This document shows, piece by piece, positions 15,265 to 39,956 of a stretch of 64,000 bases of DNA. The notes beneath the pieces were generated by a model. The model saw only the letters and a list, made by a program, of their open reading frames with translations, searched no databases and was not told where the DNA came from. The stretch comes from an uncultured Schlesneria sp. Its GTDB lineage: Bacteria > Planctomycetota > Planctomycetia > Planctomycetales > Planctomycetaceae. The stretch's first letter is position 1. Each line of letters begins with the position of its first letter. The translations under genes and the position numbers were made by a program. The stretch is from the NCBI GenBank assembly GCA_903899985.1, contig CAIULL010000164.1, forward strand, positions 62,001-126,000. The letters are read 5' to 3'.

Positions 15265-15430
15265 TCGTTTGACCGCGCCTCGCAGAGAAGCGGGAACGGA
15301 GCGGCAGATTTGATGTCAACCGAGGCGTCATTTCCTCGTTGGAGCGTTGCGAAAACTCAGCGGTGCGGCAACGTTCCAAGAGATCGGCTGGACGCCGATC
15401 CACCTGCGCCGATGGCTACGGGTTAAACGA
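15265..15430. repeat. 166-bp repeat family, copy 1
   Basis: Begins TCGTTTGACCGCGCC and ends GGCTACGGGTTAAACGA, so the ends form a ~10-bp terminal inverted repeat (TCGTTTAACC/GGTTAAACGA, one mismatch on the left here). It is nearly identical to copy 2 (15444-15609), only 13 bases away in the same orientation, and clearly related to copy 3 (35369-35533). No transposase or stable ORF inside; the short ORFs across it come from the repeat itself. The rest of the dnaK-DUF1080 gap (14980-15673) apart from the operator holds nothing recognised. Confidence 0.93.
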
Positions 15431-15443
15431 GGCAGAGTCATCT

Positions 15444-15609
15444 TCGTTTAACCGCGCCTCGCAGAGAAGCGGGAACGGAGCGGCAGATTTGACGTCAACC
15501 GAAGTGTCATTTCCTCGTTGGAGCGTTGCGAAAACTCAGCATTGCGGCAACGTTCCAAGCGATCGGCTGGACGCCGATCCACCTGCGCCAATGGCTACGG
15601 GTTAAACGA
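15444..15609. repeat. 166-bp repeat family, copy 2
   Basis: Same length and orientation as copy 1, with perfect terminal repeats TCGTTTAACC and GGTTAAACGA. It differs from copy 1 by roughly ten substitutions and no gaps. The internal blocks CGCAGAGAAGCGGGAACGGA and GATCGGCTGGACGCCGATCC are shared; the second contains a small palindrome (GATCGGC..GCCGATC) that would form an internal hairpin. The stretch 15610-15673 behind it holds nothing recognised. Confidence 0.93.
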
Positions 15610-28111: not shown

Positions 28112-29185
28112 ATGAAGTTCAACGCGTTGAAGTCTTTCGTTTCGATCGCTCTGATTGGTGGCGCATTTGCCCCCGCAACCGCTCGTGCAGGTAACGTACC
28201 TGCACCAGCCTGGCCGCTTTACGTCGGTGACCGCAGCACGTACAGCGTCACGAATGCCAGCATTCAGGGCGATGTGCCGGTGTTCGACAGCAGTGGCACC
28301 CAAATTCGGAATCTTAATGACACGTCGTCCTCTACCGGACTCGGATCGGCGGAGGGGATGGCCGTAGATGCCAATTACCTGTATGCCGCAGGCGCCTTCG
28401 GTACGATCAACGTTGTTGACAAGGTGACCGGCGCTTCGCATCTGGAAATCCAGACTCAGATTTCCGGTGAATCACAAGCTCAGTGTATCGGCCTGACCTT
28501 GGCGAATGGCAACATTTATGTCGTAACCTACGGGGCAACAACCGGTTACTCGATCGAACGTTATGATGCAGCGACAGGCGCATTCCTTAACTCCGTCGTT
28601 GGCGGCACAACCACGACGTTCTTCGGCCTGGCCGCAACCGCCGACGGCCACATTATCGCCGACTTCGGCAAAACCACGGGTACTGACGGGGTTTATCAGT
28701 ACAACTCTGATCTTTCAGCGAAAACCACGCTTGTCGCACCCGGGGCTGGTACAAGTGGCGGCCGTTTCGCCGGCGTTTCAACCGACGTGAATACCGGTAA
28801 TTTCTTCGTCAGCGAAACCTTAGGGGCCGGCACCGGTCCGTCCGTCATCCATGAGTACGATGCCTCCGGAAACAACATCGGCAACTTCAATTTCACAAAA
28901 AATCAGTGGTTTACGGCAGTCGGACCTGACGGCAACCTTTACGCTGCCTTCATCGACGTCAATAAAATTGACAAGATTACGCTGAACAATGGCGTTCTTG
29001 ACAATACCAGCACCGACACCACCTTCATCAGCCCCGCCGGAACGTATCCGAAGTCGCTGGTCTTCGACATCAGCAGCAACGTAACTCCGCCGCCAAGCCC
29101 CGTGCCTGAACCGTCCACAATGATCACGCTCTTCACAGGCATCGTTGGACTGGTCGGCTATCGCCGATTCCTTGGCAAAAAGTAA
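28112..29185 (+). CDS. PEP-CTERM sorting domain protein with propeller-like body
   Basis: 357 residues. Signal peptide MKFNALKSFVSIALIGGAF, cleavage near ARA-GN. The body has repeated blades of the NHL/SMP-30 kind (GMAVDANYLYAAGAFGTINV; LTLANGNIYVVTYG; VGPDGNLYAAFIDVNKI). The C-terminus VPEPSTMITLFTGIVGLVGY then RRFLGKK is a clear PEP-CTERM sorting signal: PEP motif, hydrophobic helix, basic tail. It is expected to be exported and processed by an exosortase that is not in this window. The ATG at 28112 is 11 bases after AAAGGAAG. A rho-independent terminator follows. Confidence 0.92.
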   Translation: MKFNALKSFVSIALIGGAFAPATARAGNVPAPAWPLYVGDRSTYSVTNASIQGDVPVFDSSGTQIRNLNDTSSSTGLGSAEGMAVDANYLYAAGAFGTINVVDKVTGASHLEIQTQISGESQAQCIGLTLANGNIYVVTYGATTGYSIERYDAATGAFLNSVVGGTTTTFFGLAATADGHIIADFGKTTGTDGVYQYNSDLSAKTTLVAPGAGTSGGRFAGVSTDVNTGNFFVSETLGAGTGPSVIHEYDASGNNIGNFNFTKNQWFTAVGPDGNLYAAFIDVNKIDKITLNNGVLDNTSTDTTFISPAGTYPKSLVFDISSNVTPPPSPVPEPSTMITLFTGIVGLVGYRRFLGKK

Positions 29186-35368: not shown

Positions 35369-35533
35369 TCGTTTAACCGCGCCTCGCAGAGAAGCGGGGA
35401 CAAACCGGCAAATCTGACGTCAACCGAGGCGTCATTTCTTGCTCGGGCTTTGCGAAAAGTCGACGCCACGGCAACTTCCGAAGAGATCGGCTGAACGCCG
35501 ATTCTCCTGCGCCGCTGGCTACGGGTTAAACGA
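35369..35533. repeat. 166-bp repeat family, copy 3
   Basis: 165 bases, TCGTTTAACCGCGCC to GGCTACGGGTTAAACGA with perfect 10-bp terminal inverted repeats, more diverged inside than copies 1 and 2 but with the same blocks (CGCAGAGAAGCGGG, GACGTCAACCGAGGCGTCATT, GAGATCGGCTGAACGCCGAT). It sits 19 bases after the TIGR04255-like gene and its right end overlaps the last four codons and stop of trpS. Confidence 0.92.
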
Positions 35534-36514
35534 AGCGTCTGTTGCGTGGGCTAGCAACCCGCACGCTTGTCTGACTCGCTTAAGGACTTCCTGGCCCTTT
35601 TTTCTGGCCTTCCTGGCACCTTCCTGTAAGACCCCTTCGACATATGCGGGGTCTGCGACCAGTTCCGTTCGTCTGGTTCTGGCAGCGTTGAAATAGGACA
35701 TGGACGCGTCGAAGACTGCCTGTTTGGCCTCGCCGTAACCCATTCCCCCCGCTCGATACCGTTCGGCCAGTGTTCCCTGCTGCTCTGGTGAGGCAAAGAG
35801 CTGGTAAAGGGCGAAGACCGAGCACGTTTCTGGATCTTTCGGTGCTTCCATCGGCAACGAATCGGTCTTGATCGACATGATCCGTTTTCTCAGTGACTTT
35901 TCCGGCTCAAAGATCTCGATCGTGTTGCCGTAACTTTTCGACATCTTTTCACCATCGGTCCCCGGCACCTTGGCTCCTTCTTTAAGAACGCGAGCTGTGG
36001 GCAAATGCAGAAATTCGCCGCCGTACGTACTGTTAAATCGCTGAGCGATATCGCGAGTCACTTCCAGGTGCTGGATCTGGTCGGCTCCGACAGGCACTAC
36101 GTCACTGTCGTACAGCAGGATGTCTGCGGCCATCAGCACGGGATACGTGAACAACCCCGCATCCGGGGCGATTCCCTTAGCAACCTTGTCCTTATACGAA
36201 GTGCATTTCTCCAGCAGACTGAACTGAGTGACCGTCAGCAATAGCCACATCAGTTCTGTCACTTCAGGAACATCCGATTGCCGAAACAGTGTCGCGCGAG
36301 CGGGGTCCAGGCCGAGTGCAAGCAAATCCAGCGCGGCATCCGTCACGTTCTGTTTCAAAGCCTTGGCATCACGGACGGTCGTCAGTGCATGAAGGTCTGC
36401 GATGAAATAAAACGATTGCTCGTTCCCTTGCAAGGCGATGTATTGCTGAATCGCGCCGAAGTAATTGCCCCAATGAAATCGCCCCGTGGGCTGAATACCG
36501 GAAAGAACTCGCAT
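35519..36514 (-). CDS. trpS: tryptophan--tRNA ligase
   Basis: 331 residues, normal for bacterial TrpRS, the cytoplasmic enzyme charging tRNA-Trp. Class I motifs: [20 protein letters not shown] (HIGH equivalent) and [12 protein letters not shown] (KMSKS). [20 protein letters not shown] marks the tryptophan site region. The C-terminus [14 protein letters not shown] ends inside the 166-bp repeat: codons for S-F-N-P and the TAG stop are its terminal repeat. Start ATG at 36514. No T-box or trp-type leader was seen upstream. Confidence 0.97.
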
Positions 36515-39864: not shown

Positions 39865-39956
39865 GTGCCACTGCTTTGGAGCCCTCGGAAAAGCCGTGGC
39901 TTCGCTCTCTTCCAAGCTGAGAGCACTGCTTGATCGAAACGACCAAGCAGTGGCAC
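39865..39956. repeat. 90-97 bp repeat family, copy A
   Basis: Starts GTGCCACTGCTTTGGAG and ends AAGCAGTGGCAC, so the ends are an inverted repeat (GTGCCACTGCTT). Internal GCACTGCTTGA matches copies B (51770-51859) and C (60679-60775), all in the same orientation. In the gap upstream of the small membrane protein genes; the remainder of 39755-40062 holds nothing else recognised. Confidence 0.85.

What the first reader, a model, noticed from the sequence alone, without database searches (positions are those of the whole stretch)
15265..15609. 166-bp repeat family with terminal inverted repeats: two tandem copies plus a third 20 kb away
Two copies of the same length (15265-15430 and 15444-15609) and a third at 35369-35533 all run TCGTTTAACC...GGTTAAACGA, with shared internal blocks and an internal GATCGGC/GCCGATC palindrome. 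No transposase is nearby. The size, ends and repeat number suggest a miniature inverted-repeat element or a structured RNA; the close tandem pair suggests recent duplication.
Basis: seen in the sequence. Interest (0 to 1): 0.65.

Follow-up and report, generated by a model that had tools for sequence, protein, structure and literature searches.

The report
Giant RAYT-linked tandem repeats in Schlesneria
The three copies belong to a family of about 165-base repeats scattered between genes of a freshwater bacterium; in sister species the same repeats flank a small single-strand DNA-cutting transposase gene that probably spread them, making them an oversized version of a known kind of bacterial mini-repeat.

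Summary
The repeats are real. Copies at 15265-15430, 15444-15609 and 35369-35533 belong to a family with 71 blastn matches on 38 contigs of the genome, an uncultured Schlesneria (Planctomycetota). The body is about 163 bp with GTTTAACC...GGTTAAAC ends, conserved flanks, a variable middle and one hairpin. Adjacent copies are head-to-tail (76 of 76), usually with a 15/16-nt spacer. Clusters are mostly intergenic (75 of 81) and favour convergent genes (44 of 67).

No Y1 transposase matched on the window's contig, but in three sister genomes a Y1/HUH transposase of RAYT type has these repeats on both sides at 4 of 4 loci. Close orthologues occur in 3 of 5 genomes with the repeat and 0 of 10 congeners without it. 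No target-site duplication and little covariation argue against a classical MITE or a conserved RNA.

Best reading: RAYT-mobilised, REPIN-like non-autonomous elements, unusually long, without a conserved GTAG tag. The cognate RAYT was not found in the window's draft genome, and movement is inferred, not shown. New variant of a known kind.

The parts
15265..15430 (+). repeat copy 1 (166 bp), ends TCGTTTGACC / GGTTAAACGA
15431..15443 (+). spacer between tandem copies; with the two flanking ends (15421-15453) it makes the inter-unit palindrome GGTTAAACGA-N13-TCGTTTAACC
15444..15609 (+). repeat copy 2 (166 bp), 95% identical to copy 1
35369..35533 (+). repeat copy 3 (165 bp), single, between convergent ORFs; site occupied also in G001 and G005, not in G004
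15382..15400 (+). right-end hairpin GATCGGC-N5-GCCGATC of copy 1; its basal pair is G-C or A-T across the family
15561..15579 (+). right-end hairpin of copy 2
35485..35503 (+). right-end hairpin of copy 3 (GATCGGC-N5-GCCGATT)
15265..15294 (+). conserved left end of copy 1 (blocks of ten at 0.93-0.96 over 130 copies)
15381..15430 (+). conserved right end of copy 1 (blocks at 0.86-0.94)
15295..15380 (+). variable middle of copy 1 (blocks at 0.51-0.88)

Best explanation
The repeat is a REPIN-like, non-autonomous element of a RAYT system of Schlesneria. SHOWN: about 163-bp units with inverted 8-bp cores (GTTTAACC/GGTTAAAC), conserved left and right ends, a variable middle and a right-end hairpin; dispersed, mostly intergenic, often in head-to-tail arrays; in three sister genomes a Y1/HUH transposase of RAYT type, under purifying selection, sits directly between such repeats. 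INFERRED: the RAYT recognises single-stranded repeat ends (hairpin plus GTTTAACC tag), cuts through its tyrosine and joins copies elsewhere without duplicating the target; arrays then grow and shrink by whole units (body plus spacer) through recombination or replication slippage. In the window's genome the cognate RAYT is lost or unassembled, so its copies are probably relics or passengers (dispersed copies differ by about 8% or more).
For: RAYT with the repeat on both sides, repeats antisense to it, at 4 of 4 close-orthologue loci (L182, L183, L184, L200). L182 and L183 share outer flank, so at least three contexts as far as the fetched flanks show. A profile search of 15 genus genomes is bimodal: four hits above 310 bits (G001 twice, G005, G014), all others at most 57.5. 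Close RAYT in 3 of 5 genomes with the repeat, 0 of 10 without; Fisher p = 0.022. Protein: Pfam Y1_Tnp 26-28 bits; NCBIfam REP_Tyr_transpos 47-54 bits, below its cut-off of 80; best solved-structure profile hit TnpAREP 4er8, E 9.2e-6; model pLDDT 83 with Foldseek top hits ISDra2 TnpA and 4er8; H-x-H, I-x-Y and the N of IRYVxxNP invariant in 13 relatives; dN/dS 0.07-0.13, with dS up to about 2. Nine of nine more distant RAYT loci examined have their own palindromes or repeats on both sides; the closest one outside the genus (L185, about 50% identity) has a roughly 88-bp palindrome ending CGTTTAGYC/GGCTAAACG, as have L186 and L201 in shorter form. No TSD. Copy number differs at 14 of 21 orthologous sites.
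Against: No RAYT of this clade in the window's own genome or in G004, both carriers. A 32-residue piece at 59% identity was listed in G003, which lacks the repeat. Dispersed G000 copies are old (best identity between loci 0.916, leaving aside one contig-end pair at 0.988) and many sites are shared between species (23 of 40 clusters, three of them on short single-flank matches only), so recent transposition is not seen in G000. No clean empty site was obtained: where the element is absent other sequence, often another palindromic repeat, fills the place. GTAG, the tag of studied REPs, is present in only 23 of 131 copies. Four of 81 clusters lie over 90% inside ORFs. Folding is only modestly better than shuffles. 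Four of the nine distant RAYT loci (L187, L189, L202, L207) show no GTTTARCC end.
Confidence: 0.82

Rival explanations
1. Classical MITE: a deletion derivative of an IS with a DDE transposase acting on the terminal inverted repeats.
For: Inverted ends, size and copy number.
Against: No target-site duplication stands out in 48 distinct flank pairs; the transposase found beside the repeat is of Y1 type. No dedicated search for a DDE IS with these ends was made. Head-to-tail arrays with a near-fixed spacer are unusual for MITEs (general knowledge).
Confidence: 0.05
2. Conserved structured RNA (tandem small RNA genes or terminator-like 3' elements) selected for its fold.
For: RNA fold of copy 1, + strand, z -3.2; mean z -1.8 (plus) and -2.5 (minus) over 40 copies; preference for convergent gene ends; a right-end hairpin with a covarying basal pair.
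Against: Covariation term -0.59 kcal/mol over 52 copies, 3 of 23 pairs with changes on both sides; the middle varies in sequence and length (149-198 bp in all); no Rfam gathering hit for the repeats.
Confidence: 0.05
3. Satellite-like repeats spread only by recombination, with the RAYT beside them a bystander.
For: Adjacent copies most alike, copy-number differences at shared sites, RAYT not found in 2 of 5 carriers.
Against: Dispersal over 38 contigs; repeats directly on both sides of the RAYT at 4 of 4 loci; nine of nine more distant RAYT loci show the same architecture with other palindromes.
Confidence: 0.07
4. Integron-type attC sites: the ends GTTTAAC...GTTAAAC fit the attC core consensus RYYYAAC...GTTRRRY (recalled), and arrays look like cassettes without genes.
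For: Match of the end motifs; some arrays break within the GTTAAAC motif.
Against: Dispersed over 38 contigs rather than one array; an enzyme of another class is found beside the repeat. No integrase search was made.
Confidence: 0.01

Closest known systems
REPINs of Pseudomonas fluorescens SBW25 (Bertels and Rainey 2011, PMC3116915; passages seen, section 11 read)
   Same: Conserved inverted left and right ends with a less conserved spacer, extragenic, dispersed; tandem clusters that repeat flanking sequence too; a cluster beside each of three RAYT genes.
   Different: Here the unit is about 163 bp (in GI REPINs the two 16-mers start 71 bp apart), the two ends share only an 8-bp inverted core, GTAG is not conserved, and the cognate RAYT was not found in two carrier genomes.
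REPtrons and TIRtrons (Di Nocera et al. 2013, PMC3733652; passages seen, section 16 read)
   Same: Y1 transposase gene decorated by repeats that form a dispersed family; long terminal repeats can replace REPs; REP families reported in Planctomycetes.
   Different: The flanking repeats here are direct, multi-copy and each internally inverted; GTAG in 23 of 131 copies. The GGGGWSAS motif of some TIRs was not searched for.
TnpAREP subclasses with atypical secondary structures (Quentin et al. 2018, PMC6006769; passages seen)
   Same: RAYT-like proteins whose flanking structures lack GT[AG]G are described (subclass 2.6 and class 3, the latter present in Planctomycetes).
   Different: The Y motif here is YVxxNP, not the class 3 YV..EQ; the N-terminal YGxWLPNDPRG block is not mentioned in the passages seen.
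IS elements that target REPs (Tobes and Pareja 2006, PMC1525189; abstract and outline seen)
   Same: 7 of 7 located ends of one IS in this genome abut the GGTTAAAC or CGTTTAAC end of the repeat.
   Different: The IS here has 13-bp inverted ends and its family is unidentified.

Membership tests
REPIN / REP of a RAYT system | RAYT (Y1, HUH) gene flanked by copies of the repeat | tested here: met
   4 of 4 close-orthologue loci in G001, G005, G014; Y1 identity
REPIN / REP of a RAYT system | cognate RAYT in the same genome as the repeat | tested here: not met
   none found in G000 or G004; both are draft assemblies, and in G000 many arrays end contigs
REPIN / REP of a RAYT system | high copy number, extragenic | tested here: met
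   71 matches; 75 of 81 clusters under 10% ORF-covered against 18% of random placements, 4 of 81 over 90%
REPIN / REP of a RAYT system | two conserved inverted ends with a variable spacer | tested here: met
   end blocks 0.86-0.96, middle down to 0.51; the inverted core is only 8 bp and the ends otherwise differ
REPIN / REP of a RAYT system | GTAG tag next to the hairpin | tested here: not met
   23 of 131 copies; 22 of 131 by an exact rule, 25 of 130 by alignment column
REPIN / REP of a RAYT system | unit folds into a hairpin as single-stranded DNA | tested here: inconclusive
   DNA z -1.05 and -0.92 for copy 1; the right-end hairpin is kept in 118-127 of 127-129 copies per pair
REPIN / REP of a RAYT system | RAYT binds, cuts and moves the repeat | not testable with these tools
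   needs biochemistry
TIRtron (TIRYT) | terminal repeats inverted about the transposase gene | tested here: not met
   repeats on the two sides have the same orientation at 4 of 4 loci
DDE MITE | target-site duplication | tested here: not met
   48 distinct flank pairs, lengths 2-10, offsets 0-24; nothing stands out
structured RNA family | compensatory base changes over several helices | tested here: not met
   3 of 23 predicted pairs change on both sides, in 18, 6 and 3 of 52 copies; the Rfam gathering scan of the window gave only a tRNA
integron attC | array next to an integron integrase | not tested
   no integrase search; dispersal over 38 contigs speaks against it

The most novel reading that the evidence does not exclude
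A distinct planctomycete RAYT branch (YGxWLPNDPRG block) reads a GTTTARCC tag instead of GTAG and mobilises composite units of up to more than 160 bp, and the head-to-tail arrays with a near-fixed 15/16-nt spacer are direct products of its strand-transfer chemistry (for example joined single-strand circles) rather than later slippage.
Probability: 0.3. Interest if true: 0.6.

Novelty: new variant of a known kind. Interest (0 to 1): 0.42.

Why it matters
Movement of REP-type repeats by RAYTs is inferred mainly from a few systems with short GTAG-tagged repeats. A long, GTAG-poor, array-forming system in Planctomycetota, with orthologous sites, carrier genomes with and without a detectable enzyme, and whole-unit copy-number changes, would let one test what a RAYT recognises and whether repeat populations outlive their enzyme. 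Such arrays may also explain contig breaks in these metagenome assemblies.

Tried and rejected
Structured RNA: consensus fold and pair counts on 52 of the 131 full copies, hairpin counts on 130 and z-scores on 40; one clear hairpin, little covariation elsewhere. No covariance model was built.

MITE: flank k-mer scan for duplications; nothing stood out. Comparison of four sites with relatives (window pair, window copy 3, L014, L035) gave presence/absence but no clean junction.

Y1 genes of the window's own genome as mobiliser: 11 PF01797 matches, none with the 165-bp repeat in the fetched flanks. Four of these loci (L085, L086, L087, L093) have other repeats, roughly 50-210 bp, on both sides.

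Phage or plasmid origin: 0 in viral contigs by exact pattern of the 5' end, no match in plasmids or phages.

Coding: length varies without regard to 3; not pursued further.

Literature: eight full-text searches. The listings seen (not always the full result) showed no report of a Schlesneria repeat of this kind; the library lacks most subscription journals. One paper listed for 'RAYT' in planctomycetes (PMC11588811) matched only an author name in its references.

The cluster, flank and orientation tests use a crude ORF caller. In the copy-number count one pair (L158-L031) repeats a locus and one pair (L157-L040, equal numbers) was dropped by my duplicate rule; partial copies count as copies there. 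Of the 23 shared sites, L012, L018 and L019 rest on single-flank matches of 104-176 bp that may be another repeat.

Full report
OBSERVATION. The pair is 95% identical over 170 bases with a start-to-start spacing of 179. Copy 1 begins TCGTTTGACC; the other two begin TCGTTTAACC. The conserved 26-base 5' end occurs 3 times in the window against 0.00 expected in 100 shuffles. blastn of copy 1 against the window's own genome (G000: 8.0 Mb, 296 contigs) gives 71 matches on 38 contigs, many at contig ends. By contig number and length these correspond to G001, G004, G005 and G014. A blastn search of 59 relatives matched 8: G000, G001, G004 and G005 over the full length, G014 over parts, and three other genera (G022, G024, G028) with end pieces of about 30 bases only.

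ANATOMY. I collected 131 full copies (130 distinct; 52 from G000, 48 G001, 17 G005, 9 G004, 4 G014). Length is 149-198, mostly 163-166. Conservation is highest in the first 30 and last 50 positions and falls to 0.51 in the middle. The outer inverted core is GTTTAACC/GGTTAAAC (each pair kept in 115-129 of 129-130 copies); beyond it the two ends differ. A right-end hairpin (GATCGGC-N5-GCCGATC) is kept in 118-127 of 127-129 copies per pair, and its basal pair is G-C in 64 and A-T in 52 of 128. A consensus fold of 52 copies has a covariation term of only -0.59 kcal/mol; 3 of 23 pairs change on both sides. Mean RNA-folding z over 40 copies is -1.8 (plus) and -2.5 (minus). Copy 1 has RNA z -3.2 and -1.55 and DNA z -1.05 and -0.92. 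Rfam at gathering thresholds found only a tRNA in the window.

ARRAYS. Neighbouring hits less than 120 bp apart, partial ones included, are in the same orientation in 76 of 76 cases, with a spacer of 16 nt in 33 and 15 nt in 10. Adjacent full copies average 0.875 identity (29 pairs), other loci of the same genome 0.777 and different genomes 0.756. At 21 orthologous sites matched on both flanks, array copy number (partial copies included) differs at 14. So arrays change by whole units in place. Of 40 clusters in G000, 23 have an occupied counterpart among the loci fetched, three of them on short single-flank matches only, so many sites predate the split of these species. The window's own sites show both patterns: copy 3 has occupied counterparts in G001 and G005 but not G004; the pair has an array in G001, while G004 and G005 carry another palindromic repeat (GTGCCACTGCT...AGCAGTGGCAC) there.

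PLACE IN THE GENOME. With a crude ORF caller, 75 of 81 clusters are less than 10% covered by ORFs (18% of random placements) and 4 of 81 more than 90%. Of 67 with neighbours on both sides, 44 lie between convergent genes, 18 between genes in tandem and 5 between divergent ones, against 25 convergent among 147 element-free gaps of 100 bp or more. No flank duplication stands out among 48 distinct flank pairs.

THE ENZYME. Comparing flanks of corresponding clusters pointed to loci where two clusters sit about 0.8 kb apart. The gene between them is a Y1 transposase with ORFs of 209-237 aa: Pfam Y1_Tnp 26-28 bits, cut-off 23; NCBIfam REP-associated tyrosine transposase 47-54 bits, below its cut-off of 80. 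A profile of 13 relatives hits TnpAREP 4er8 first among solved chains (E 9.2e-6). An AlphaFold model (pLDDT 83) has ISDra2 TnpA and 4er8 among its best Foldseek hits (E 2.4e-5 and 3.1e-5, TM 0.44-0.46 by query length). H-x-H, I-x-Y and the N of IRYVxxNP, and an N-terminal YGxWLPNDPRG block, are invariant in the alignment. dN/dS among the four close copies is 0.07-0.13, with dS up to about 2 and so near saturation for some pairs. All four close copies (L182 in G005, L183 and L200 in G001, L184 in G014) have the repeat on both sides, antisense to the gene. L182 and L183 share outer flank; the others do not as far as fetched, so these are at least three contexts. A profile search of 15 genus genomes is bimodal: these four above 310 bits, everything else at most 57.5. 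A close copy is in 3 of 5 genomes with the repeat and 0 of 10 without (Fisher p 0.022); one 32-residue piece at 59% identity was listed in G003, which lacks the repeat. None was found in G000 or G004; both are drafts, so loss and non-assembly cannot be told apart.

RELATED SYSTEMS. Nine more distant relatives (in G021, G026, G029, G031, G051; 33-50% identity) have their own palindromes or repeats on both sides of the gene, 9 of 9. The closest, L185 in G026, has a palindrome of roughly 88 bp ending CGTTTAGYC/GGCTAAACG on both sides; L186 and L201 have shorter ones with CGTTTAGCC/GGCTAAACG, L188 and L206 partial matches, and L187, L189, L202 and L207 none. In G000 itself four other Y1 genes (L085, L086, L087, L093) lie between other repeats. 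The arrangement is thus common in these bacteria.

MECHANISM. Work on E. coli and Stenotrophomonas TnpAREP shows that such enzymes cut single-stranded REP DNA and join strands, with the GTAG motif involved in recognition and perhaps in choosing the cleavage site (PMC8266576, passages seen). By analogy I infer that this RAYT acts on the ends of the 163-bp unit, with the right-end hairpin and the GTTTAACC tag as candidate recognition parts. This is not shown. GTAG itself is present in only 23 of 131 copies. Growth of arrays by slippage or unequal exchange fits the whole-unit differences; formation by the enzyme is possible.

COMPARISON. REPINs (PMC3116915, passages seen and section 11 read) share the symmetric conserved ends, the variable spacer, extragenic dispersal, tandem clusters that include flanking sequence, and clusters beside RAYT genes. 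Differences are size, the missing tag and the weakly related ends. TIRtrons (PMC3733652, section 16 read) have inverted repeats around the gene; here the flanking repeats are direct. So the element works like a REPIN but fails some tested features of tagged REPs, and I file it as a variant.

VERDICT. An ordinary kind of mobile repeat in an unusual form: new variant of a known kind. The interest lies in size, tag and arrays, not in a new principle.

Noticed in passing
L032:1-168 and loci L095-L101 (G000): An IS-like element with 13-bp inverted ends (TTGAACGGTATTG): all 7 located copies of one end abut the GGTTAAAC or CGTTTAAC end of the repeat; L034 carries what looks like the other end at the same kind of junction. 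Target-specific insertion into the repeat; transposase not found, no match in 8 congeners.
   Followed up: partly
window 39865-39956 (GTGCCACTGC..GCAGTGGCAC pair), single motifs at 28290 and 60679; pair site (15265-15609) in G004 and G005: A second palindromic repeat family GTGCCACTGCT...AGCAGTGGCAC. It fills sites where the 165-bp element is missing in relatives (pair site, L014 site, apparently L035 site) and lies upstream of a Y1 gene in L088.
   Followed up: partly
window 35519-35533: The tRNA synthetase-like ORF 35519-36514 (-) ends inside copy 3, so the repeat supplies its stop codon.
   Followed up: no
L050 (G024), L051 (G028), L052 (G022): Other palindromic bodies in other genera with TCGTTTAACC- or GGTTAAACGA-type ends; both ends seen in L050.
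   Followed up: no
L018 and L019 contig ends (G000): Another shared sequence (starts CCATTTTCCGCACCC) directly next to the repeat end at both places found, with weaker matches beside clusters in G001 and G004; possibly a second mobile element that targets the repeat.
   Followed up: no
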